64,000 nucleotides of DNA from Nonlabens xiamenensis (GTDB lineage: Bacteria > Bacteroidota > Bacteroidia > Flavobacteriales > Flavobacteriaceae). Made by a program: the position numbers and the translations under genes. Below the pieces are notes generated by a model, which had not been told where the DNA came from, did not search any database, and worked only from the letters and a program-made list of their open reading frames with translations. The stretch lies in contig NZ_RMVE01000003.1 in assembly GCF_003865345.1 (NCBI RefSeq), positions 310,001 to 374,000 on the forward strand, given 5' to 3'. Shown piece by piece: positions 3,331 to 30,905 of this stretch. The first letter of the stretch is position 1. Each line of letters opens with the position of its first letter.

Positions 3331-4683
3331 TCAAGCAATCACTACTGTTTTAATATTGGTGAATTCCCTAATCCCAAAAGCTGAGAGTTCGCGTCCATAA
3401 CCAGAAATCCCAGTTCCGCCGAAAGGCAATGCTGGATGACTGGCTACTTTGTGATTGATAAAAACGGCTCCGTCTTTAATTTTATGGGATAACTTTTCCA
3501 TGCGGTCTACATCTGTCGAAAACAGGCTGGCCCCCAGACCAAATTTTGAGTTGTTGACCATATCAATAGCTTTCTCTTCGGTAGAAAATGTGGTTACAGC
3601 AATCAGCGGTCCAAAGGTTTCTTCCGTGAAAACGGGCATATCTTCTGTTACATCAGTTAATATAGTGGGTTCATAAAAGGCTTTGTCTCTTTTTCCGCCG
3701 AGTTTTAATTGTGCACCTTGATTCAGAGAATCATTCATGAGCTCTTCTAATTCCTCGGCAAGATCTTCTCTGGCCATGACTCCAATATAGGTTTCATCAT
3801 CCATTGGGTCTCCAGCTGATAATTCTTGCACCTTCTGGGTGAACTTTTTCATGAATTCTTCTTCAATGTTTTCGTCTAGCAATAAGCGTTTACCTGCTAT
3901 ACAGCTTTGTCCGGTATTTTGATACCTGGCATCCACACACTTTTCAACAGCATCATCCAAATCGGCATCTTTAAAAACTACAAGTGCATTATTTCCTCCC
4001 AGTTCTAATACAGATTTTTTGATTGCACCACCAGCTGTCGCCGCTACACTACTACCTGCTGGTTTGGAACCGGTAAGCGTCACTGCTTTGATGATCTCGT
4101 TTTTGATCACTCCTTCAATCGGGTCGCTGGAAACTACCAGGTTTTGGAAACAGCCTTTTGGAAAACCTGCGGTGGTGAAAAGCTGCTCTATACGTTCTGC
4201 ACAACCCATCACACTGCTTGCGTGTTTCAATACACCCACGTTACCGGCCATTAAGGCAGGAATGATAAATCTAAATACCTGCCAATAGGGATAATTCCAC
4301 GGCATTACGGCCAGCACCACACCTAGCGGCTCGTAAGACACATAGGATTTGAGGTGTTCCGTTTCTATAAATTCACTGGCCAGATATTCAGGTGCCTTTG
4401 TTGCATAATGCTCACAGAGCCATGCACATTTTTCAAGTTCGCCACGCGACTGACTGATAGGTTTACCCATTTCCTCTGTCATTTGTTGCGCGTAGTAATC
4501 CGTATTTGATTTCAGCAGACGAGCAACTTCTTTAACTTTTTCGGCACGGTGGTCAAAACTGGTATTCTTCCAATCTTGAAAAGCTTGTTGTGCCCGATCT
4601 AATTTTTGCTGAATCTCAGATTCTGTGAGTTCGTTATATTGTGCGATTTCCTTTCCTGTATAGGGATTGATGGTCGTAATCAT
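3331..4683 (-). CDS. Aldehyde dehydrogenase, succinate-semialdehyde dehydrogenase type
   Basis: 450 residues, the length of the short SSADH-like branch (GabD/Sad type). Visible landmarks: PWNYP at 128-132, the NAD(P)-binding lysine K153 in LKHAS, general base E227 in ELGGN, catalytic C261 in GQSCIAGKR, and ETFGP near the C-terminus. It oxidises an aldehyde to an acid with NAD(P)+, most likely succinate semialdehyde to succinate in GABA-type catabolism; the substrate cannot be fixed by eye. Monocistronic, minus strand, with ATG at 4683. No other GABA genes are nearby. Confidence 0.88.
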   Translation of the reverse strand: MITTINPYTGKEIAQYNELTESEIQQKLDRAQQAFQDWKNTSFDHRAEKVKEVARLLKSNTDYYAQQMTEEMGKPISQSRGELEKCAWLCEHYATKAPEYLASEFIETEHLKSYVSYEPLGVVLAVMPWNYPYWQVFRFIIPALMAGNVGVLKHASSVMGCAERIEQLFTTAGFPKGCFQNLVVSSDPIEGVIKNEIIKAVTLTGSKPAGSSVAATAGGAIKKSVLELGGNNALVVFKDADLDDAVEKCVDARYQNTGQSCIAGKRLLLDENIEEEFMKKFTQKVQELSAGDPMDDETYIGVMAREDLAEELEELMNDSLNQGAQLKLGGKRDKAFYEPTILTDVTEDMPVFTEETFGPLIAVTTFSTEEKAIDMVNNSKFGLGASLFSTDVDRMEKLSHKIKDGAVFINHKVASHPALPFGGTGISGYGRELSAFGIREFTNIKTVVIA

Positions 4684-4856
4684 GTTTTTCTTTTAAAATT
4701 ACGATACCTCAACGCATATTGAGCAAGGCTTTAGAAGTTGTTAACGATTGCCACTAAATCGTTTAACGATGTTGGATAAAAGAAATAGCCTATATGCTGT
4801 TCGATGTATAATCCTCCTTTCGAAAAATAATTATTGACGATTTGTCCAATGCTTTA

Positions 4857-5819
4857 CTATCTATGCGACAGCCACTGGCGAACATTGGTGTCGATGCGAT
4901 TTGATATATCAGAGGTATCGGCTTTTTCAAAGTCTCTACCAGTGATCCTTTCATAAAGTTCGACGTAGCGATCACTCACACCCTGGATATATTCATCGCT
5001 CATTTCTGGTACCTGCTGCCCTTCCAAACCTTGAAAATCATTGGAGATCAACCATTGTCGAACGAATTCCTTGCTGAGTTGTTTCTGAGGTTCATTGTTG
5101 TCCTGACGTTGCTGATACCCGTCGGCATAAAAGTATCTGGAAGAATCTGGTGTATGAATTTCGTCTATCAATACTATTGTTCCATCCTGTGTTTTTCCAA
5201 ATTCATATTTGGTATCCACCAGAATCAATCCGCGCTTTGCGGCAAGCTCGGTACCACGTTGAAACAGCGCCTTGGTGTATTTTTCTAGTACGGCATAATC
5301 TTCGGCAGAGACAATTTTGCGTTGTAGAATTTCCTCTTTGGAAATGTCTTCATCGTGGTCTCCCATTTCTGCTTTTGTAGCAGGAGTGATGATTGGCTCA
5401 GGAAATCTATCGTTTTCTTTCATGCCATCTGGCATGGAAACACCACACAATTCTCTTTTACCCTTTTTGTATTCCCTGGCAGCATGACCAGACAAGTACC
5501 CACGAATGACCATTTCTACCTTAAAAGGTTCACAACGATGTCCGATGGCTACATTAGGGTCAGGAGTTGCCAGCAACCAGTTGGGAACAATATCTTCGGT
5601 ATCCTTCATCATTTGAGTAGCGATCTGGTTGAGAATTTGCCCTTTATAAGGTATCCCCTTAGGCATCACCACATCAAAGGCACTGAGTCTATCACTGGCG
5701 ATCATCACTAATAATTGATCCTCCAGATAATACACTTCCCTGACTTTTCCTTTGTATACTTTTTGTTGTCCGGGAAAATCAAAATCTGTCCCTGTGATGG
5801 TTGTAGGTAATGATGGCAT
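4857..5819 (-). CDS. purC: SAICAR synthase (PurC)
   Basis: About 320 residues, the long form usual in Bacteroidetes. The N-terminus has [16 protein letters not shown], followed by [12 protein letters not shown] and [17 protein letters not shown], classic SAICAR synthase motifs. It joins CAIR and aspartate with ATP in purine biosynthesis. Start set at ATG 5819. The open frame extends to a TTG at 5873, but a likely -7 box (CAAATTTG, 5845-5852) with TTG 18 bases upstream lies inside that extension, and homologues begin close to the ATG. phoH lies upstream on the same strand, an arrangement common in flavobacteria. Confidence 0.95.
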
Positions 5820-6039
5820 GCCTCTAATGGTTTGGATTGCTGCACAAATTTGCAGATTTTTCAGTTGCCTCAACTAACATTGAGCAATTAATTTAAATGA
5901 AGTTATTGACTGGATATCATCAGCATTCATTTTCTGAAAAATGAAAACAAATAACTTTGGCCAAGAGCCGCAACGTGCATATATAGTGCGCTAATTAGCC
6001 TATCAGTTGATAAAACAATCCTTAGATCAATAATCCGAA

Positions 6040-6990
6040 TCAATTCCTGTTTTCAATCTGTTTGTAAGCTGCCACGACATGTTTTACCAGACGGTGTCTG
6101 ACCACATCACTATCGTCCAAATACATCATACCCACACCCTTGACATCCTTCAAGATCAACAAAGCCTCTTTGAGTCCAGAAGTGACCCTCCTGGGCAGAT
6201 CAATCTGCCCAGGATCACCAGTAATGAAGAATTTGGCATCCTTACCCATTCTCGTCAGAAACATTTTCATTTGCGCGTGGGTGGTGTTTTGAGATTCATC
6301 CAGTATCACATAAGCCTGGTCCAGTGTTCTTCCTCTCATAAAAGCCAATGGCGCAATCTGAATGGTACCTTTTTCAATGTAAGCGGCAAGACGTTCTGCA
6401 GGAATCATATCCCTTAGTGCGTCGTATATAGGTTGCATATAAGGGTCAAGTTTTTCTTTGAGATCTCCAGGTAAAAAACCAAGGTTCTCGCCTGCTTCTA
6501 CGGCTGGTCTTGTGATAATAATTCTTTTGACTTGTTTCTCCTTGAGTGCACGCACCGCCAAGGCCACACCAATATAGGTTTTACCAGTACCTGCGGGACC
6601 TACGGCAAAAACCATATCATTCTTGTTACAAAGTTCTACCAGTTTGCGCTGATTGGGAGTTTTAGGACGAATCAGCATTCCTGAATTACCATGTACAAGG
6701 ACTTCATCTTTTCCCTTGCCCATATAATCATGGCTGCTGTCACTGGTCAGCAATCGTTCCATCACGTTTTCATCCATTTTATTGTATATACCAAAATGGG
6801 TCAACATCATTTGGATACGTTTGTCAAATTCAGCTAATTGTTCTTCATCTCCATATACCTTCATGGTACTACCTCTTGCCACAATTTTCAATTTGGGGAA
6901 ATGGGATTTTAAGAAAGCTAGATTCTTGTTTTTGGCTCCAAAAAATTCTCTTGGATTGGATTCTGACAGGTCGATGATAAGTTCGTTCAA
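6040..6990 (-). CDS. phoH: PhoH-family ATPase
   Basis: 316 residues. Walker A GPAGTGKT at 131-138, RPAVEAGE after it, Walker B VILDESQN at 228-235 and GDPGQIDLPR after that, which is the PhoH/YbeZ core. PhoH proteins are thought to act in RNA metabolism, often beside YbeY; the exact job is not settled. The start is a TTG at 6990 giving (M)NELIIDL, which fits family N-termini; the next in-frame ATG would remove conserved sequence. It lies upstream of purC and diverges from the SAM hydrolase operon. Confidence 0.92.
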   Translation of the reverse strand: MNELIIDLSESNPREFFGAKNKNLAFLKSHFPKLKIVARGSTMKVYGDEEQLAEFDKRIQMMLTHFGIYNKMDENVMERLLTSDSSHDYMGKGKDEVLVHGNSGMLIRPKTPNQRKLVELCNKNDMVFAVGPAGTGKTYIGVALAVRALKEKQVKRIIITRPAVEAGENLGFLPGDLKEKLDPYMQPIYDALRDMIPAERLAAYIEKGTIQIAPLAFMRGRTLDQAYVILDESQNTTHAQMKMFLTRMGKDAKFFITGDPGQIDLPRRVTSGLKEALLILKDVKGVGMMYLDDSDVVRHRLVKHVVAAYKQIENRN

Positions 6991-21681: not shown

Positions 21682-21756
21682 CGGGATGTGGCGCAGTCCG
21701 GTTAGCGTACATGGCTGGGGGTCATGTGGTCGCAGGTTCAAATCCTGTCATCCCGA
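21682..21756 (+). tRNA. tRNA-Pro(GGG)
   Basis: Cloverleaf folds fully: acceptor CGGGATG with CATCCCG, D-stem GCGC/GCGT, anticodon stem CATGG/TCATG with loop CTGGGGG (anticodon GGG), and T-arm GCAGG-TTCAAAT-CCTGT. Discriminator A, no encoded CCA. Its last 17 bases (21740-21756) are repeated downstream and form part of the island-flanking repeats, so it is the likely attachment target. Confidence 0.95.
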
Positions 21757-21763
21757 CAAACAG

Positions 21764-21796
21764 ATGCCTGACAACGAAAGTTGTTGGGCATTTTTT
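21764..21796 (+). terminator. Terminator of tRNA-Pro
   Basis: A 12-bp stem with two G-T pairs (21764-21775 with 21780-21791), a GAAA tetraloop and six T. Located 7 bases after the tRNA. Confidence 0.93.
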
Positions 21797-21890
21797 GTGT
21801 TGGTCGTTGCCGAGCTCAGCCTCGAGCATAAGACCAATACAGAAAATGTCCAGACACGCATTAAGCGTGGCAGGCAGCTAATTGCAAACA

Positions 21891-21929
21891 ATGCGATGTA
21901 AAAGGGTTCTGTAAATCCTGTCATCCCGA
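21891..21929 (+). repeat. Internal copy of the att-like repeat
   Basis: 39-bp sequence spanning the junction of tandem units 1 and 2; it matches the island-flanking repeats with a few changes (GGGTTCTGT for GGATTCTAT). Confidence 0.8.
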
Positions 21930-21936
21930 CAAACAG

Positions 21937-21969
21937 ATGCCTGACAACGAAAGTTGTTGGGCATTTTTT
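21937..21969 (+). terminator. Second copy of the tRNA-Pro terminator
   Basis: Same hairpin as at 21764-21796, displaced by exactly 173 bases as part of the tandem repeat. Confidence 0.85.
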
Positions 21970-22063
21970 GTGTTGGTCGTTGCCGAGCTCAACCTCGAGC
22001 ATAAGACCAATACAGAAAATGTCCAGACACGCATTAAGCGTGGCCGGTAGCTAATTGCAAACA

Positions 22064-22102
22064 ATGCGATGTAAAAGGATCCTATAAATCCTGTCATCCC
22101 GA
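22064..22102 (+). repeat. Left att-like direct repeat of the island
   Basis: 39 bases, identical at 37 positions to 30859-30897. Its 3' part is the tRNA-Pro 3' end (AAATCCTGTCATCCCGA). Marks the left boundary of the inserted region. Confidence 0.85.
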
Positions 22103-22171
22103 AAAATGAGGCTTTATAAAATTGGAGTTTTTTCCATAGCATCGAAAACCAACCGATTCGGTTATCAATTG

Positions 22172-23075: not shown

Positions 23076-24368
23076 CTATCTATCAAACAATTCTCTAAAT
23101 CGATAAATAAACCTATCTATAAGGCGAAGATCCTCTGTGATAATTTCAGCGGTGGCAATAGCTTCTTGAGAAAGCTCAATTTTTTTATTATAGGTTGTAA
23201 TAAGGTTTTCTGGTAATTGAACAATGACTAAGTAATTCCCGTCATCGTCTGTACTCGACCCCATACTTTCAACACTACCAATAAGACTACCATACTCAGG
23301 CTCAGGATAGCTGATCATATTTATATTGACACGTTGTCCAGGTTTTACTTTTCCAAAATTTAAAGCTGGTGTTTTACAAAATGCAAGGTATCCTTCAGGG
23401 TTTTCCGGAAAGATGGTGAAAAGTTCTTCTCCTGCCTGCACAAAATTACCTTCTTCCCAGTTTGTTGGAAAACTGATGGTTCCAGAGCGATTGGCATAAG
23501 TTAAATAGGTACTCTTGTAATTACTTATAGATCGCTTTAAATTAATAAACGCTTGATTAACACTTCGCCTTAAAGTAAAATTAGCGATCTCGTTTTCAAT
23601 GGCGATGCCCTTTAATGTACCAGAATTATTGTAAAGCTGATTGCGTAATTGAGAGATCTGACTGGTAAAGGATTGATAAGAGCGTTCGTATTGAAAGATG
23701 TCTAGTTGTTTCGATTCATATTCTTGTCTTGCAATAACACCTTTGTCAAACAAAGTTTTCATGCGACGTAATTCTTCTTGTTTTAATTCTAGTTCTTTCA
23801 AATTGTTTCGCTTTCGCGAAAGCAAGTTCTCCAACTGTATTTCAAGCTCTCTTCGATTAAATTTCTGCGATTGAGTATTGTTTTCAAAAGGTTTAAGCTT
23901 TCGGTTGAGCTCATAACTCAAATACGCGTTCTCAAACGCAGCATAGTCCTGCTCGAGATCGCCCAAGTATAATATAGGCATACTGTAAATAGGAAAAGTA
24001 ACATTTTCATTATCCATGGAAAGTGTATCTAGCGTTCTTTCCAATAACAAAACATCTTGAAAAGCAGCATTATTCTCAAGGATCATTAATAAATCCCCTT
24101 CTTGCACCTTTCCATTCTCCGTAACATAAATGCTGTCTAGCCTTGTACTTACTTGTGCCAGTTCTTTTTGAGGTGCGTCTCTTGTGGTAATAATAGCTTG
24201 TGTAGGTACCAGGTCAGGGTATTCTATAAGATAAGACAGTCCTAACCCAAGGATGATGACAAGTAAAATTGAAAAGCTGCCATAACGCAGTAAAAAGTGT
24301 GGTACACGGGTTATGATCTCCTGTACCTCATCACTGCGCAATTCTAAGTTCTCATTATTTTCTGGCAT
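23076..24368 (-). CDS. HlyD-family membrane fusion protein of the peptide exporter
   Basis: 430 residues. One membrane helix near 28-48, a first beta/lipoyl half (VSTRLDSIYVTENGKVQEGDLLM), a long coiled coil (about 140-260: RRELEIQLENLLSRKRNNLKELELKQEELRRMKTLFDKGVI) and a second lipoyl/barrel half (NRSGTISFPTNWEEGNFVQAGEELF, VKPGQRVNINMISYPEPEYG). It links the inner-membrane ABC exporter to the outer membrane. Start ATG 24368 overlaps the exporter stop by one base. Palindrome at 23810-23823 encodes LSRKR in the coiled coil. Confidence 0.93.
   Translation of the reverse strand: MPENNENLELRSDEVQEIITRVPHFLLRYGSFSILLVIILGLGLSYLIEYPDLVPTQAIITTRDAPQKELAQVSTRLDSIYVTENGKVQEGDLLMILENNAAFQDVLLLERTLDTLSMDNENVTFPIYSMPILYLGDLEQDYAAFENAYLSYELNRKLKPFENNTQSQKFNRRELEIQLENLLSRKRNNLKELELKQEELRRMKTLFDKGVIARQEYESKQLDIFQYERSYQSFTSQISQLRNQLYNNSGTLKGIAIENEIANFTLRRSVNQAFINLKRSISNYKSTYLTYANRSGTISFPTNWEEGNFVQAGEELFTIFPENPEGYLAFCKTPALNFGKVKPGQRVNINMISYPEPEYGSLIGSVESMGSSTDDDGNYLVIVQLPENLITTYNKKIELSQEAIATAEIITEDLRLIDRFIYRFRELFDR
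23810..23823. repeat. In-gene palindrome copy inside the island
   Basis: Exact GCTTTCGCGAAAGC, read as LSRKR within the HlyD-like gene; the only copy in the island. Confidence 0.9.
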
Positions 24369-26557
24369 TAATTCCCTAGTTCTAGTTGGTTTTTGACCAG
24401 TTCGTAATAGGCTCCCTTTTTTGCTGTAAGTTCTTGATGGTTACCGGTCTCTATAATTCTTCCTTTTGACAACACCACGATTTGATCTGCATTCTTTACA
24501 GTACTCAATCTGTGCGCAATGATTAGAACTGTTTTATCCTTAAAGAACTGGTTCAGATTATTCATAATGATCTTTTCATTGTTAGCATCTAGTGCGCTAG
24601 TAGCCTCATCAAAAAACAAAAAATCTGGGTTTTTGTAAACCGCTCTTGCTATCAATAGGCGTTGTTTTTGTCCGGTACTCAAGCCTGTGCCTTCTTGACC
24701 TATTTTGGTATTATAAGAAAGTGGTAGCATTTCTATAAAATCCTTTATGTTGGCGATGCTAATGGCTCGCTCCAGCCTTTCCTGATCAATGTAATCTTCC
24801 CCAACTGCGATATTATAGGCAATTGTGTCGTTAAATATATAACCTTCCTGCATTACCGTGCCACTGCTGTCTCGCCATGCTTGGTGTGAAATATGATGGA
24901 GTTTTTGATTTCCTAGGTAAACAGTTCCCTGTTGTGGTTCATAGAACTTGAGCAACATTTTCATTAATGTGGTCTTTCCACTACCACTGGTACCTACAAT
25001 AGCAGTAACTTTATTGGCAGGAATAATCATGTCTAAGTCTTCCAGAACGAATTGATTACTTCCCATATATCTAAAACTGACGTTCTCAAGAATTATATCA
25101 CTATCCAGTTGAACTTTCATGATGCGCTGTTCTTCTGGAGGCTCCTCGTCCTCCCGATCATGGATTTCTCCCAATCTTTCTAGAGAGATGCGCGCATCCT
25201 GTAGTTCTCTCACATAGTTGATCAGCTGTCCTATAGGAGCATTAAGTTGACCCACTATATAGGTAATTGCCAGCATCATACCAAGAGTGATATCGCCTGA
25301 AATAACTAGCGTTGCAGAAATGATCGTAATAAAAATGTTCTTTAGCTCGTTGATAAATCCAGATCCTACGCCCTGAAACTGCTCCAACCTCAAACCTTCC
25401 ATCGCTACCTTAAATAGTCTTGCCTGCGTGTACTCCCAGTTCCATCGCTTACGCCTTTCCGCATTATGAAGTTTGATGTCTTGCATTCCATTAATTATTT
25501 CAATGACTTTGCTTTGCTCTTGACTGACTTGTGAGAAGCGTTTATAATCTAGATCCCGTCGTTTTTTAAGAAAAATGGCAATCCATAAAAAATAAAGAGC
25601 ACTACCAGCCATAAATATTCCAAAAATCAGCCAGCTATAATAGGCAAGCACGATACTAAAAATGATCAAATTGAACATTCCAAACAATACCGACAATGAC
25701 GAGGTTGTAAGGATTTGCTCAATACGCCTATGGTCGTTGATGCGCTGTAGAATATCTCCAGTGACTCTAGAATCAAAATAGGCAATTGGCAATTTCATCA
25801 ACTTGATAAAAAAGTCTGATACAAGCGAGATATTGATGCGGGTACTCAAATGCAGTAGGATCCAACTACGTATGACTTCAATCACGGTACGACCTAAGAA
25901 TACGGCCAACTGGGCAAAAAGTACTAAATAGATAAAACCTATATCTTGATTCTTGATCCCAATATCTACTACACTTTGAGTCAAAAAAGGAACTACTAGT
26001 TGTAATAAACTAGCCGCAAGCAATCCCAGCACCAGTTGCCATAAAAGATTTCTATGCCGCTTAATATAATGGGTCAGGACTCCAAAACCATATTTCGATT
26101 CTTCGTCATCTTCAAAATCATTATTAAAGCCAATCGTAGGTTCAAGCATCAATGCTATTCCTTCTTGAGAATCTTCTTTGGCACTTTTACCGATCCACGC
26201 ATCAATGAATTCTCGTTGAGAATATTTGATCAAACCATGTGCAGGATCTGCAATAAAAAATCGATTTTGTTTGATCTTATATAGTATAACGTAATGATTC
26301 TGCGACCAATGCAAAATACATGGCAACGGTGCTTTAATAAGTTTCTTAGTACTTAGTTTTACAGCAAGAGTTTTGAAGCCTATCTGCTCTGCAGCCTCAC
26401 TAATACCTAATAAACTACTACCTTCACGAGTAGTCTCCGCCACCTGCCTCAAACGATCTATGGAAAGTGTTTTTCCGTAATGTCTAGCTACCATTTTAAG
26501 ACAGGTGGGACCACAATCTTTAGCCTCTGACTGTTTAAAAATTCTAAACCGCTTCAA
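24368..26557 (-). CDS. Peptidase-containing ABC transporter (C39 PCAT)
   Basis: 729 residues. C39 peptidase domain first: Q9, C15 in KDCGPTC, H88 in QNHYV and D104 in IADP form the catalytic set. Membrane domain about 165-440 with the usual helices. Nucleotide-binding domain: Walker A GTSGSGKT 522-529, signature LSTGQKQ 626-632, Walker B FLFFDE 646-651, H-loop H682. It should cut double-glycine leaders and export the core peptides. The start is TTG 26557; the nearby ATG is out of frame. Last but one gene of the cassette, immediately before the HlyD partner. All active-site residues look intact. Confidence 0.95.
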   Translation of the reverse strand: MKRFRIFKQSEAKDCGPTCLKMVARHYGKTLSIDRLRQVAETTREGSSLLGISEAAEQIGFKTLAVKLSTKKLIKAPLPCILHWSQNHYVILYKIKQNRFFIADPAHGLIKYSQREFIDAWIGKSAKEDSQEGIALMLEPTIGFNNDFEDDEESKYGFGVLTHYIKRHRNLLWQLVLGLLAASLLQLVVPFLTQSVVDIGIKNQDIGFIYLVLFAQLAVFLGRTVIEVIRSWILLHLSTRINISLVSDFFIKLMKLPIAYFDSRVTGDILQRINDHRRIEQILTTSSLSVLFGMFNLIIFSIVLAYYSWLIFGIFMAGSALYFLWIAIFLKKRRDLDYKRFSQVSQEQSKVIEIINGMQDIKLHNAERRKRWNWEYTQARLFKVAMEGLRLEQFQGVGSGFINELKNIFITIISATLVISGDITLGMMLAITYIVGQLNAPIGQLINYVRELQDARISLERLGEIHDREDEEPPEEQRIMKVQLDSDIILENVSFRYMGSNQFVLEDLDMIIPANKVTAIVGTSGSGKTTLMKMLLKFYEPQQGTVYLGNQKLHHISHQAWRDSSGTVMQEGYIFNDTIAYNIAVGEDYIDQERLERAISIANIKDFIEMLPLSYNTKIGQEGTGLSTGQKQRLLIARAVYKNPDFLFFDEATSALDANNEKIIMNNLNQFFKDKTVLIIAHRLSTVKNADQIVVLSKGRIIETGNHQELTAKKGAYYELVKNQLELGN

Positions 26558-26732: not shown

Positions 26733-26987
26733 TTAGTCGCCATGAGCACAGTCATAACCACATTTAGAATTACCTTCATTTATAATGAAGTTCGCACAGT
26801 AATCATTTGCAACCCCACTTTCACGTTCAGCTGGCTGTAGACTAGGACTTATAGTCATTGTATACATTGTTTCACTTCCTTGGGAATCTGTTAGATAAAT
26901 AATACAGGTGCCACCGCCTTGAATGATTCTTTGAGTCTCTTTAGATAATAAGAATATTCCGTCTGTGTTAATTAAATTTTCAAACAA
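26733..26987 (-). CDS. Precursor peptide A, GG-leader, four-Cys
   Basis: 84 residues from TTG 26987; the TTG is the only start that gives the MFENLINTDG leader, which aligns with MFQDLMSTEG of precursor B. Leader ends with LSKETQRIIQGGG (GGG 24-26), matching a C39 double-glycine cut site. Core of about 58-60 residues with cysteines at 28, 64, 76 and 80, the last two in KCGYDCAHGD. 33 bases follow the end of the upstream TlpA-like remnant. Likely a secreted bacteriocin-like or signalling peptide; activity unknown. Confidence 0.8.
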   Translation of the reverse strand: MFENLINTDGIFLLSKETQRIIQGGGTCIIYLTDSQGSETMYTMTISPSLQPAERESGVANDYCANFIINEGNSKCGYDCAHGD

Positions 26988-27020
26988 ATTTTTAATATTT
27001 TGATTATTGATTAGTTGAAA

Positions 27021-28385
27021 TTACCAATTATCATAATTATTTATATCCTGTAGCTTTGGTAAAAATTGTTCTTGTTGAGGGTGGTAAAATGCTTGATCTA
27101 TAAGATTTAAGTTCCTATCTATTAGAATATATCTCGGTAGTGTTTCTAACTGTATAAATTTTAAAAACTCCGTATTTTCGGTGAACGTTTCACTTAAATG
27201 ATAACTAACATCTTGACCTAGTTCTTAGGTTAAATCTTGCCATTTTTTAAAATCTTTATCTTTATCTAAACTAACACTTATAACTTCAATATTATATGGC
27301 AGTTTCATACCTTTGATCAGTTTTACTCCTTCAATACATGGAGCACACCAAGTAGCCCAAAAATCAATCAAGTAAAATTCATTCGGATTTGCCTTCATGA
27401 TATTTTCAAAGGTTTGTTCTCCATTAAATTTTAATCTTTGAATTTTTTCTTTAAAAGTGATTGCATCTAACGGCTCAATTTTGCTTTTTAATGCGACTGA
27501 ATCTCTTTGAAATTCTTTGGTAGACTTAAACCAAGCTATTGCCTCGTCAAGCTCATGATCTCCAATGTTATCTTCAAATGAAAGAATTCTAAACATTGAT
27601 TCCTTATACAATTTCAAACAATAATCATTCTCGATACTCTGATAATCATTGAAATTATATGAGCGTATTCTTGAATTTAAATGATTTTCTGGTAAAGAAC
27701 CAAATAGTGTGTTAATGATTAGCGAATTAGGCTTTAATTGTTTGAAAAAAAAGTCTGATTCAGTATTACGAGGGTCAACCTTTTCCAAATATGTGTAGAA
27801 AAGAAGATCATTGTGGTAAGAGAGTCTTTCATTCTTATTTTTTTCGCGGACGGCAGTAATTTCTGCCTTAATAGTAGCCTTATCATATTCGCTTTTCTTT
27901 GAAGCCCAAAATACAGACATGTAGCGATTTATCAAATTATTTATCTGCAATTGCAAAGAGTCATCTTTTATTCCCAGATTTCCATTCTCCATTAAATCTA
28001 GATTGATTGTGTCTGATTCATTAGTAAGATATACAAAATCTAAACGAAAATCTGATCCGTCAAATTGAGCTGCAACGTGTGGTCGAAAATGATTTTCGAA
28101 TTTATAAATTATTGTGGAATCTGATGAGCTAGGATTCGAAAATGAAAAATACATATCTCCCTGATAAGGCAAAGTAAGATTTAAGCCAGCATAGGTTTTT
28201 GCAGGTATTACACTTTTAAGAAATGTATAATCTGCTACAGCCTTTTCAGATTCAACCTCTACAGGATCTTTAAACTTCTCTTTTGAATCCTGTTTGCAAC
28301 CGATCAATGCGATAGTAACTAAAAAAAGAAGGAGTAATATACTCCTTCTCAATTTAAGAGATTTCTGTCTATCTACCAAATCCAT
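27021..28385 (-). pseudogene. TlpA-like thioredoxin lipoprotein with in-frame TAA
   Basis: Start ATG 28385 inside the 3' end of precursor B (17-base overlap); longer in-frame starts would overlap it more. Signal peptide with lipobox ALIGC (C30), a domain of unknown family, then a C-terminal TlpA/thioredoxin domain with FWATWCAPC (CAPC 347-350). At codon 387 a TAA (27225-27227) stops the frame. The same frame stays open for 67 more codons and encodes the missing thioredoxin half, including LPRYILID with the cis-proline (about 417), to a TAA at 27021-27023. One point change would restore a 454-residue protein. As it stands the fold lacks its cis-Pro loop. Probable role: reducing or proofreading disulfides in the periplasm. 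Confidence 0.8.
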
Positions 28386-28620
28386 CGTATGCACAATCAT
28401 ATTGACATCTATCCCATCCAGCTTCGATCGCCTGTACACAATGGGTATTGGCGACAATTGAATCATTGGGACCTTGAATAAGTCCAGTACTAATCTCTTG
28501 TGTGAATGTAGTGCCACCACTGGTGTATGTAACTCTACACTTTCCACCACCGTTAACGCTAGTTTGCCGTTGTTTTGAGAGTACAGTAACTCCTTCCGTA
28601 CTCATTAAATCTTGAAACAT
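28369..28620 (-). CDS. Precursor peptide B, GG-leader, four-Cys
   Basis: 83 residues, ATG start. Leader MFQDLMSTEG...LSKQRQTSVNGGG with GGG at 24-26, the same spacing as precursor A. Core cysteines at 28, 61, 72 and 76, ending RCQYDCAYDGFGR; the C-x-Y-D-C-A motif is shared with A. Encoded between the oxidoreductase genes of the cassette, which fits a disulfide-bonded product exported by the C39 transporter. I know no named family for the core. Confidence 0.82.
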   Translation of the reverse strand: MFQDLMSTEGVTVLSKQRQTSVNGGGKCRVTYTSGGTTFTQEISTGLIQGPNDSIVANTHCVQAIEAGWDRCQYDCAYDGFGR

Positions 28621-28709: not shown

Positions 28710-30278
28710 TTATACAGCCTTTTCCATAGGCTGCATTAATTTATTGTTTAGTTCGATGATTATATCTTTTATTTGATCTTTTGTATAGCTGGAGGTGACC
28801 AATTTATTATTAATGATTAGTGCTGGGGTGTAATTAATTTGCTGGCTAAAGCACCAATTCCGGTGTTCTATCAATTGTTTATGGATCACTGTTTTGTCAA
28901 AACTCCTTTGCCATTTTTTAGTCCAAACTTTGTAATTTTTATTTTGAAACCAGTCTGTAAGTGCTTCGTTCTGTATTTCCAAGGGTAAGGCAAGAATAGA
29001 GGCGCTTATTATGTAGGCTTTGCTTTCTTTATCATGAGCTTCTACCAAAAATCTAGGACTCAAATGCATATGAATATGATCAAGATCTGATATTACTTGT
29101 TCCATTCTGTGATGTAGTATTTTGCATCCTGGACAACTAGGATTTGTGACTCATATAATCTCAACACCATCCTGTTGCAGGTGCTTAAAATCTTTATCAT
29201 AATCTTCCAAACGAGTATCGATCAAAGGCAACTTATCTATCAATGTCTCTAGCACTTGCGGCGTGCGCCATAGAGTTAAATATTTCAACTGGTTTTCAAA
29301 ACTGCTGGCTTTAAATTTAAAACCTTTCTTAATCTGTGATAAGGCCATTATTGAAATTAGAGTGGCACTTAAAAGTATTAATAGAGAAAGAACATCTATT
29401 GCAAAGAAATCTAGCAATGGTAAACTGAAAAGTGCAGTCACCACAATAAAGCCAGCAATTCCCAGACATAAGGGACACCATTTTTTTATGATTACAGCTT
29501 GTATGTAGATACTATATGGCAAGACGGCTGCGCCGGAAATAGCAATTATACCAACTAGACTCACTTGTAAGGTTATCAGTTGCAACAATGCTACAGAACC
29601 GAAGTAAATCCAACATAAATCGGTTAGTTCTATTTTATTAAAAATTTTAGCTTGTGGTGAATTGATTACGCTGTTGCAATCTGACTTTTTACTCAACTTG
29701 CATATTTTGAGACCTTGCCCATTGCTGTACTTTTGCTGTAATAGAAAATATGAAAGTACTAATCCACTAGATAAAGCACAAAATATCAATAATTGCGGCA
29801 AGCTTTCTGTCGAAAAGGCTATATAAAGGAGAGCAAAAAGGAATATGCATATCGCACCAATATATTCTGCATTTTTCTTTGATAAGAACCTTCTAATATT
29901 CGTTGAAGTTTTATTTTCTTCTACAGCAAACACAACTCCAGTCCATTCGTTGAGAAAATGATTTTTGGCAAAAGGTTGAAAATTACCTACCCCCTTGGTA
30001 AATGAAATATCGCCATTGGTTTCTTTCTTGATCAAAACTAGTAGCTCCTTTTGTCCATTGCTTATTTGCGCTATGAAATAATTAGGCAATTTTCCTAGTG
30101 CAGCAGGTGGCACTCTCATCGATGCATTGCGCACTTCAAAAAAATCACAAGTGTTAGAATATGCTTGGAGCGACTTTTCACGATCAGATTGCATACGCAA
30201 TCTCAATTCTTTTTCTGCAACATCATGCCCTTGAAATTCAAGCAACCGTTTTAACAAATAAGTTCCGTTTTCTATCAA
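28710..30278 (-). pseudogene. C39-like/VKOR/thioredoxin fusion with in-frame TGA
   Basis: One 523-codon frame split by TGA at 29151-29153 (codon 376). N-terminal C39-like domain without the catalytic Cys, then a membrane VKOR domain with C193/C201 and WCPLC (C268, C271). Straight after the TGA the frame continues VTNPSCPGCKILHHRM, the CxxC of a DsbA-like thioredoxin domain, which ends with cis-Pro YTPALIINN. The start is TTG 30278; an in-frame stop lies 21 bases upstream with no other start codon between. Such fusions oxidise cysteines of exported peptides via quinone. Without readthrough the VKOR part loses its own partner thioredoxin. The downstream piece has an internal ATG at 29105, but that lies after the CxxC. 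Confidence 0.82.
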
Positions 30279-30586
30279 AAGTTTAACATTAACTCTTTAA
30301 AATTAAAATAAAAATTAACTTTTATAGCTGTTTGGTTTTTTTTGTTATGGAATTGGTATTTTTTGTTAAGGAATTTATTCCTAGCTGTTTTCTCTTCCTT
30401 TTGGACCAATTGTTCGCTGATAGTTTCGCGTGACTCATTTTGATCGGAGACAGTCTTTTCATCGACAATCACCGCCTGATTAACGGCAGTGGCGACTGTT
30501 CCAGCCACAGCCAGGTACGTGACCAAGGTCACCCGCGGCGCCACCCATAGTGGCCAGTGCATGGCCAATATTGCGCAAGACTCCAA
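30275..30586 (-). CDS. Doubtful small ORF upstream of the VKOR gene
   Basis: Up to 103 codons from TTG 30586, or about 95 from ATG 30562. A possible membrane helix (LVTYLAVAGTVATAVNQAVIV) is followed by a charged, A/T-rich tail. TTGA overlap with the VKOR start would couple the two. The 5' half (30450-30600) is clearly richer in G+C than the rest of the cassette. No family recognised; it may be chance coding. Confidence 0.3.
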   Translation of the reverse strand: MESCAILAMHWPLWVAPRVTLVTYLAVAGTVATAVNQAVIVDEKTVSDQNESRETISEQLVQKEEKTARNKFLNKKYQFHNKKNQTAIKVNFYFNFKELMLNF

Positions 30587-30617: not shown

Positions 30618-30860
30618 CTATAATATTAATAATTTATAAATTTTGATGTGTATATCAACTTTTTCGCTACTTTCAAAAGCCTCATGACAAATCGCCAAAA
30701 GCTTATTCAATGCCGCTCTGGATTGAAGTCCTTTTCCGATGCCTGTAGGTGAACTTACTAAGGCAATGCAGCCCTGCAGCTCTTTCACTGCATCATTAGC
30801 CGTGTGTATCAAAATCAAACTTCTATTTGGTATATCCAGCAAGTGTAAATAATGCTGCAT
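30618..30860 (-). pseudogene. 5'-truncated DUF5675 protein at the island edge
   Basis: 80 codons: IPNRSLILIHTANDAVKELQGCIALV and SRAALNKLLAIC match the C-terminal half of DUF5675 proteins (conserved IHxxN...GCI...S-x-x-AL). The N-terminal half is absent; the frame's ATG lies across the first bases of the right direct repeat. Family members come mostly from phages and mobile elements. The break at the repeat implies that recombination removed the front of the gene. Confidence 0.65.
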
Positions 30861-30897
30861 GCGATGTAAAAGGATTCTATAAATCCTGTCATGCCGA
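30859..30897 (+). repeat. Right att-like direct repeat of the island
   Basis: 39 bases, 37 identical to 22064-22102 (changes at GGATTC and CATGCCGA). Carries the tRNA-Pro 3'-end sequence with one change. Abuts the truncated DUF5675 gene and the transglutaminase-like gene. Confidence 0.85.
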
Positions 30898-30905
30898 CTG
30901 GATGA

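What the first reader, a model, noticed from the sequence alone, without database searches (positions are those of the whole stretch)
26733..28620. Two paralogous double-glycine-leader peptides with a conserved four-cysteine core
Seen: the 84- and 83-residue ORFs share leader layout (MF-x-x-L, LSK-x-x-Q, GGG at 24-26) and a first Cys at 28, then C-x(3)-C at the end in a C-x-Y-D-C-A motif (A: 76/80; B: 72/76). Between them the cores differ strongly. Known: C39 ABC exporters cut after such GG leaders. Inference: a secreted, disulfide-bonded peptide pair, possibly a two-component bacteriocin or signal, of a core family I cannot name. This is my best candidate for an undescribed system.
Basis: partly seen in the sequence, partly recalled or inferred. 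Interest (0 to 1): 0.87.

Follow-up and report, generated by a model that had tools for sequence, protein, structure and literature searches.

The report
Exported disulfide peptides with partner enzymes
A marine bacterium carries, on a small and probably acquired DNA segment, genes for two four-cysteine peptides that look made for export; in the peptide family to which they belong almost every peptide gene sits beside its own partner thiol enzyme and seems to change in step with it, but here both helper-enzyme genes are interrupted by stop codons.

Summary
The two ORFs are real, paralogous precursors: 41% identical, E 4.6e-12, four shared cysteines. No Pfam, NCBIfam or PADLOC model matches above cut-off, but the family is not confined to this window: I count 12 full-length members in eight genomes (window, three Kordia, two Winogradskyella, two MAGs), all with exactly four cysteines. 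11 of 12 are followed at once by a TlpA-like lipoprotein with a private ~300-residue N-domain. Winogradskyella psychrotolerans has the whole layout intact: VKOR-Trx, peptide, redoxin, peptide, redoxin, C39-ABC, HlyD. In the window the VKOR-Trx and redoxin genes each carry one in-frame stop, and the locus lies between copies of a 40-nt repeat ending in the tRNA-Pro 3' end, found nowhere else in the genome. New point: peptide core and redoxin N-domain co-vary, while leader and Trx domain are alike within loci, a swapped-cassette pattern on few loci. Best explanation: exported, disulfide-folded bacteriocin-like peptides, each with a dedicated periplasmic thiol partner. An obligate two-peptide pair is unlikely: in four genomes only one was found. 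Activity is untested; the cores are acidic.

The parts
26733..26987 (-). GG-leader precursor A, 84 aa, TTG start, Cys 28/64/76/80; no redoxin gene follows it here
   Evidence: only 175 bp lie between it and the ABC gene
28369..28620 (-). GG-leader precursor B, 83 aa, ATG start, Cys 28/61/72/76
   Evidence: ten full-length homologs elsewhere
27021..28385 (-). TlpA-like redoxin lipoprotein (lipobox Cys, ~300-aa N-domain, thioredoxin domain WCAPC); one in-frame TAA at 27225-27227 leaves 62 of about 130 aligned columns of the thioredoxin domain; the chosen ATG (28383-28385) overlaps the end of peptide B, other starts are possible
   Evidence: intact homologs in L049-L055
29151..30278 (-). C39-like + VKOR part of a C39-like/VKOR/thioredoxin fusion, TTG start, ending at an in-frame TGA (29151-29153) just before the CPGC of the thioredoxin domain; no Cys in its first 43 residues
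28710..29150 (-). thioredoxin part of the same fusion, same frame, beyond the stop; the ORF listed in it (28710-29105, ATG) lacks the CPGC
24368..26557 (-). C39 peptidase-containing ABC exporter (PCAT), 729 aa, TTG start, open; QSEAKDCGPTC and HW..NHYVI..DP present
   Evidence: (PF03412 2.4e-37, PF00664, PF00005); the reading of the motifs as catalytic is recalled
23076..24368 (-). HlyD-type membrane fusion protein, 430 aa, open
   Evidence: PF13437 1.7e-10; TIGR01843 1.5e-27, below its cut-off
21682..21757 (+). tRNA-Pro(ggg); its 3' end is the sequence repeated around the locus
22064..22103 (+). left 40-nt direct repeat ending in a copy of the tRNA-Pro 3' end (1 mismatch in its 17-nt core); another copy at 21891-21930
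30859..30898 (+). right 40-nt direct repeat ending in a copy of the tRNA-Pro 3' end (1 mismatch in its 17-nt core)

Best explanation
This is a probably acquired, now partly broken locus for exported, disulfide-bonded bacteriocin-like peptides. In intact relatives it would work like this. The leader of each ~85-residue precursor is recognised and cut after the GG by the C39 domain of the ABC exporter, and the 58-65-residue core leaves through ABC-HlyD (inferred from family knowledge). A C39-like/VKOR/thioredoxin fusion oxidises the four cysteines to two disulfides, passing electrons to quinone; its C39-like part, without a Cys near the N-terminus, would dock the leader (inferred). Each peptide has its own periplasmic TlpA-like lipoprotein, whose N-domain recognises that peptide's core and whose thioredoxin domain exchanges disulfides with it (inferred). 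Core and N-domain travel as one cassette between constant flanks (leader upstream, Trx domain downstream), which gene conversion keeps alike (shown as a pattern in few loci). I take the lipoprotein as a cognate folding/isomerisation partner first and as immunity second. In the window both redox genes carry premature stops, so correct folding is probably lost (inferred).
For: Leader, four Cys and homologs. Exporter with C39 domain. VKOR fusion. Co-occurrence: of the 32 loci, 18 hold a VKOR fusion (at least 450 aa), 14 a full PCAT, and 14 of those 14 also the VKOR fusion. Disulfides: 12 of 12 type-1 peptides with four Cys; leader-related array peptides 102 of 105 with an even Cys number, 70 of 73 after removing near-duplicates, against 532 even, 902 odd and 845 without Cys among 2279 other short frames of the same loci. 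Pairing: 11 of 12 full-length type-1 peptides are followed at once by a type-1 redoxin. Cassette: over 7 non-redundant pairs core~N-domain r=0.78 (p 0.0002), leader~Trx r=0.68 (p 0.008), core~Trx r=-0.47, leader~N-domain r=-0.21. DNA identity of the two W. psychrotolerans modules: 98% around the start codon, 70% over the rest of the leader, 32-35% in most of the core, 43-63% over the N-domain, 63-97% in Trx. Trx fold: TlpA-like, best PDB match E 2.8e-7. Acquisition: VKOR fusion in 1 of 23 genomes of the genus, its own (E<=1e-10); 40-nt repeat at three places in the genome, all here; GC 30-39% at 23-31 kb against 41-46% at 17-22 and 31-36 kb.
Against: No activity, expression or mass data. All 12 cores are acidic (K+R-D-E -1 to -7), unlike typical membrane-active bacteriocins (recalled). 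The cassette rests on 7 independent pairs; with the window's pair added core~N-domain falls to 0.66, and with near-duplicates included core~Trx (0.30, p 0.026) and leader~N-domain (0.58, p 0.0008) are positive too. Core and N-domain are neighbours on the DNA, so conversion of the flanks alone could make them co-vary without any contact. 24 of the 25 leader-only loci show no full-length redoxin of either type, so a redoxin is not needed in general. Three type-1 redoxins stand without a type-1 peptide before them (G319 C38 second copy, G103, G007). Peptide A has no redoxin.
Confidence: 0.55

Rival explanations
1. The lipoprotein is the immunity protein: a membrane-anchored thioredoxin that reduces or sequesters its own peptide, so that core and N-domain form a toxin-immunity cassette exchanged between strains.
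For: One partner per peptide in 11 of 12 cases; core~N-domain co-variation with alike flanks, the pattern known (recalled) from contact-dependent toxin/immunity cassettes; redoxins in two genomes where no type-1 peptide was found: G103 (peptides; redoxin) and G007 (peptides; redoxin); a second redoxin without peptide in G319 C38; TlpA-type domains are mostly reductants (recalled).
Against: In bacteroidetocin loci the neighbouring thiol oxidoreductase is needed for toxin activity and gave no protection (PMC6671954, passages). In the window the redoxin is cut short while peptides and exporter stay open, which would be harmful if it were essential immunity and the peptides still active.
Confidence: 0.25
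2. The peptides are signals or other secreted miniproteins rather than antibacterials; the locus is a general export-and-oxidation machine for disulfide miniproteins.
For: Acidic, hydrophilic cores (negative GRAVY in 12 of 12); arrays of up to 18 leader-related peptides per locus with one exporter.
Against: No receptor or regulator stood out next to the type-1 units, though their flanks were only read by eye from ORF lists; patchy distribution and cassette swapping fit conflict better.
Confidence: 0.2
3. Two-component bacteriocin: peptides A and B act together.
For: Two full-length peptides in the window, in two Winogradskyella loci and in G319 (there on two contigs).
Against: Only one full-length peptide found in three Kordia genomes and MAG HyVt-579; outside the window each of the two has its own redoxin.
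Confidence: 0.05
4. The stop codons are sequencing or assembly errors and the window's locus is fully working.
For: Two isolated in-frame stops in otherwise open, conserved frames.
Against: No read data to check. Peptide A also lacks a redoxin, and a gene fragment and repeats lie around the locus.
Confidence: 0.15

Closest known systems
Bacteroidetocins (class IIf bacteriocins of Bacteroidales; PMC6671954, passages read)
   Same: GG leader, four Cys, C39-ABC exporter, neighbouring thiol oxidoreductase needed for activity, host phylum Bacteroidota
   Different: Leader about 25 aa against 15; core 58-65 aa against 42; acidic against somewhat basic; one lipoprotein redoxin per peptide with a co-varying N-domain; VKOR-Trx fusion and HlyD. 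Sequence homology was not tested (their sequences were not fetched)
NCBIfam NF047798 leader_Chryseo ('bacteriocin-like protein')
   Same: Leader type of related peptides: three of the five peptides scanned match below the cut-off (15.7-17.7 bits, cut-off 23.5)
   Different: Neither window peptide matches it at E<=10, nor does the W. psychrotolerans type-1 peptide at E<=1; the model covers 18 leader residues only
Pediocin PA-1 / PedC (PMC4919988, start of abstract in the listing)
   Same: Bacteriocin made with an accessory putative thiol-disulfide oxidoreductase; C39-ABC export (recalled)
   Different: Gram-positive, cationic YGNGV peptide; PedC is not a lipoprotein with a peptide-specific domain (recalled)
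CTB family bacteriocins, NF038167
   Same: Weak match of peptide B: 16.2 bits, E 0.0087, residues 6-66
   Different: Half the 32-bit cut-off; no match for A
Bacteroidota and other TlpA-like thiol-disulfide oxidoreductases (PDB 2lja, 4ka0, 1jfu)
   Same: Thioredoxin domain fold and WCxPC motif
   Different: The N-domain (predicted eight strands 21-113 and helices 121-294) has no Pfam match above cut-off; the 50 PDB matches shown align over about 130-160 columns of 436 residues

Membership tests
Bacteroidetocins (class IIf) | leader of 15 aa and mature peptide of 42 aa | tested here: not met
   GG at residues 24-26, cores 58-65 aa; reference values from PMC6671954
Bacteroidetocins (class IIf) | four cysteines | tested here: met
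   12 of 12 full-length peptides
Bacteroidetocins (class IIf) | locus with C39-ABC exporter and thiol oxidoreductase | tested here: met
   in the window the oxidoreductases are interrupted
[quoted passage not shown]
   the VKOR part is a membrane protein, but transmembrane regions were not predicted and no comparison was made
Bacteroidetocins (class IIf) | sequence similarity to known members | not tested
   their sequences were not fetched
Bacteroidetocins (class IIf) | killing of Bacteroidota | not testable with these tools
   needs bench work
Class IIa (pediocin-like) bacteriocins | YGNGVxC motif | tested here: not met
   absent by eye from the 12 sequences (listing; peptide A)
NF047798 leader_Chryseo | score above the curated cut-off | tested here: not met
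   no match of either window peptide at E<=10
CTB family bacteriocin NF038167 | score above the curated cut-off | tested here: not met
   16.2 bits against 32 for B, none for A
Two-peptide (class IIb) bacteriocins | two different peptides encoded together | tested here: not met
   one full-length peptide found in L049, L050, L051, L052; L050 and L052 reach only 6.2 and 0.9 kb upstream
C39-exported GG-leader peptides | GG leader next to a C39-ABC with its motifs | tested here: met
   cleavage itself not tested

The most novel reading that the evidence does not exclude
Core and redoxin N-domain form a toxin-partner cassette that is swapped between constant flanks (leader upstream, thioredoxin domain downstream). 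The partner protects the producer, or licenses the peptide, by disulfide exchange: a redox-based, sequence-specific immunity or activation system that I do not know from bacteriocins. More broadly, Flavobacteriaceae would carry large, fast-changing repertoires of two- and three-disulfide miniproteins made by one VKOR-C39-HlyD machine.
Probability: 0.3. Interest if true: 0.8.

Novelty: new variant of a known kind. Interest (0 to 1): 0.6.

Why it matters
It ties an unnamed peptide family to a complete, testable machine (leader-cutting exporter, dedicated oxidase, peptide-specific thiol partner), with open versions in named marine bacteria. The core/N-domain co-variation makes the question of how Bacteroidota fold, and survive, their disulfide peptides directly testable by swapping modules. 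The even-cysteine rule (102 of 105) gives a simple handle on a large set of leader-related miniproteins; of the five peptides that I scanned, none reached an NCBIfam cut-off.

Tried and rejected
Chance resemblance of the two ORFs: rejected (E 4.6e-12; family of 12). Known family: nothing above cut-off in Pfam, NCBIfam or PADLOC for either peptide; PHROGs was not run. Plasmids: no tblastn match of B; the phage collection was not searched. Viral contigs: 31 stretches matched a pattern, none confirmed. Genome contigs with B alone: 25 stretches, none confirmed; the three-row alignment gave 107 stretches and 32 loci, 25 of them matching at most 44 residues, mainly the leader.

Partial hits dropped from the family count: four rows covering 42 to 67 of 87 positions, three with stops inside, fifteen rows covering part of the query, one of them only 49-83, the partial rows of G319 (C5, C50) and those of G072 and G087 (the latter 9-82 with four stops), all rows but the window's two. 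I looked at those of G319, G363 and G113 and at the DNA of six more (G087, G072, G033, G028, G388 twice): G072 shows a GG leader with another core, the other five no GG-leader peptide frame. The rest were not examined.

Frameshift as cause of the broken genes: rejected, the frame is kept on both sides. A third peptide at 30275-30586: rejected, no leader of this type seen. Solved structures similar to the peptide model: no match at E<=0.001, and the model has only pLDDT 66. Empty site: G017 keeps the transglutaminase/sulfur-transport flank without the locus, but no tRNA was found in that stretch or in the one from G015, so the insertion point rests on the repeats only. No integrase was recognised among the ORFs scanned; the short ORFs at 22.1-23.1 kb were not all scanned.

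Literature: ten searches. I saw the listings, and passages of five papers: PMC6671954, PMC10352776, PMC10734526, PMC12648078, PMC7440613. None of what I saw describes this peptide/redoxin family. The class II bacteriocin atlas that PMC12648078 comments on reports precursors in Bacteroidota and was not itself read; most subscription journals are missing. So this is not proof that it is unpublished.

Full report
OBSERVATION. Both ORFs exist at the stated places on the minus strand. A is 84 aa with a TTG start, B is 83 aa with an ATG start. They are 40-41% identical; A finds B in the 3.68-Mb genome at E 4.6e-12, and nothing else at E<=10.

NEIGHBOURHOOD. Gene order on the minus strand: C39-like/VKOR/thioredoxin fusion, peptide B, redoxin lipoprotein, peptide A, C39-ABC exporter, HlyD. 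The exporter's C39 domain scores 2.4e-37 and shows the motifs QSEAKDCGPTC and HW..NHYVI..DP (their catalytic meaning is recalled). The fusion's C39-like part has its first cysteine at residue 44, so it is probably a docking domain (inference). The fusion is interrupted by TGA at 29151-29153 just before CPGC, the redoxin by TAA at 27225-27227 inside the thioredoxin domain, of which 62 of about 130 aligned columns remain; the frames continue and align to intact relatives on both sides.

FAMILY. The first profile matched 13 of 397 family genomes at E<=0.01, but over its full length only 3: the own genome, G319 and G223. In 59 relatives and in 395 genomes of the class only the own genome matched in full, in 99 relatives of G319 only G319. 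With second copies this makes 12 full-length peptides in eight genomes (two each in the window, W. psychrotolerans, W. costae and G319, four singles). All 12 have exactly four cysteines and the end C-x-Y-D-C.

LAYOUT ELSEWHERE. W. psychrotolerans has VKOR fusion, peptide, redoxin, peptide, redoxin, C39-ABC, HlyD in a row, all open. G319 C38 has peptide, redoxin, second redoxin, C39-ABC, HlyD. W. costae has a VKOR fusion and two units but no exporter after them. The Kordia and HyVt-579 units have no full exporter within the fetched flanks: 10 kb on each side, except that L050 reaches 6.2 kb and L052 0.9 kb upstream; whether one lies elsewhere in those genomes was not tested. Redoxins of this type without a type-1 peptide before them occur in G103, in G007 (a congener of the window genome) and as the second copy in G319 C38. 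In three overlapping samples the redoxin N-domain was found in 5 of 397, 3 of 11 (genus of G223) and 3 of 393 genomes at E<=1e-6.

CASSETTE. The redoxin consists of a lipobox, a ~300-residue N-domain without Pfam match above cut-off and a Thioredoxin_8/TlpA-like domain. Within loci the Trx domains are alike and the N-domains are not: W. psychrotolerans 76% against 32%, W. costae 86% against 32%, G319 C38 94% against 34%. Between the two Winogradskyella species the second redoxin's N-domain is 95% identical but its Trx domain only 84%, and W. costae's second Trx is 86% like its own first one, as expected from gene conversion. DNA profiles of the two W. psychrotolerans modules show 98% around the start codon, 70% over the rest of the leader, 32-35% in most of the core (65% at its end), 43-63% over the N-domain and 63-97% in Trx. 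Over 7 non-redundant pairs, core and N-domain identities correlate (r 0.78, p 0.0002; partial on Trx 0.74) and so do leader and Trx (r 0.68, p 0.008), while core~Trx (-0.47) and leader~N-domain (-0.21) do not. With the window's pair added: core~N-domain 0.66 (none of 20000 sampled permutations reached it), core~Trx -0.38, leader~Trx 0.60 (p 0.017), leader~N-domain 0.53 (p 0.11). With all ten intact pairs, near-duplicates included: core~N-domain 0.94, core~Trx 0.30 (p 0.026), leader~N-domain 0.58 (p 0.0008), leader~Trx 0.84. The sample is small, and neighbourhood on the DNA alone can produce part of this.

DISULFIDES. The 25 leader-only loci (Flavobacterium, Aquimarina and others) carry 1 to 18 short leader-related peptides each. 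Over all 32 loci, 18 hold a VKOR fusion, 14 a full C39-ABC, and all 14 of these also hold the VKOR fusion. Of the 105 peptides in the 25 loci, 102 have an even number of cysteines (65 with four, 36 with six, one with two); 70 of 73 after removing near-duplicates. Other short frames of the same loci: 532 even, 902 odd, 845 none, of 2279; most of these are presumably not genes, so this is a rough control. This is strong evidence for fully paired disulfides across the leader family. A second peptide/redoxin type (G319 C50, L053 at 4540-6392, L064) repeats the arrangement with different N-domains.

MOBILITY. A tRNA-Pro gene lies at 21682-21757. Its 17-nt 3' end recurs at 21914-21930 (exact), 22087-22103 and 30882-30898 (one mismatch each); the 40-nt repeat around it occurs at three places in the whole genome, all here. 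The segment is poorer in GC (30-39% at 23-31 kb against 41-46% at 17-22 and 31-36 kb). The VKOR fusion was not found in the 22 other genomes of the genus held, although C39-ABC relatives at 66-74% identity occur in four of them beside other genes, in G021 beside another GG peptide. The locus was most likely acquired and is eroding (inference).

STRUCTURE. The peptide model is weak (pLDDT 66.4): two strands, a helix, a strand in the core; no PDB match at E<=0.001. The redoxin model of W. psychrotolerans is good (85.2): eight strands, a helical part, thioredoxin domain, the last matching thiol-disulfide oxidoreductases of Bacteroides and others.

KNOWN SYSTEMS. Bacteroidetocins work in the most similar way (passages of PMC6671954): GG leader, four Cys, C39-ABC and a thiol oxidoreductase required for activity but not protective. 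Lengths and charge differ, and sequence homology was not tested, so I do not file this family as bacteroidetocins. It is a new variant of exported disulfide GG-leader peptides.

JUDGEMENT. Shown: the family, its pairing with redoxins, the complete layout elsewhere, the stops, the repeats, the even-cysteine rule. Supported but on few data: the cassette. Inferred: cleavage, export, disulfide pairing in this family, role of the redoxin, antibacterial function. On checking I corrected counts and wording against the calls; the odds did not change.

Noticed in passing
window 21740-22085: A 173-nt unit that starts in the tRNA-Pro 3' end is repeated in tandem (97% identical), giving extra att-like sites.
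   Followed up: partly
L055 1843-2079; L064 9735-9854, 11741-11860, 14639-14758: Short frames that copy the start of the C39-ABC exporter (..DCG[PA]TC..) and then stop stand right behind redoxin genes, as if units were duplicated together with the start of the exporter gene.
   Followed up: partly
L054 11660-13024 (Winogradskyella costae): The exporter and HlyD genes present in W. psychrotolerans are missing right after the second redoxin, while both peptide/redoxin units are kept.
   Followed up: partly
L068, L072 (Flavobacterium hydatis, Flavobacterium sp. KMS): 12 and 18 leader-related peptides in one locus with one VKOR fusion and one C39-ABC.
   Followed up: partly
L053 4540-6392; L031 12478-14368; L064 7995-11740: A second type of GG peptide followed by a TlpA-like lipoprotein with a different N-domain; two full modules in L064 (55% N-domain, 82% Trx identity).
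   Followed up: partly
L103, L104 (congeners of the window genome): Close relatives of the exporter sit near ~740-755-aa and ~280-295-aa ORFs that look like split lantibiotic dehydratase genes (recalled resemblance, not tested).
   Followed up: no
L105 10694-11853: In congener G005 two ORFs that look like an insertion-sequence transposase (recalled resemblance) stand between two pieces matching the exporter.
   Followed up: no
window 30618-30860: Fragment of a DUF5675 gene (profile positions 56-113 of 114) just inside the right repeat.
   Followed up: no
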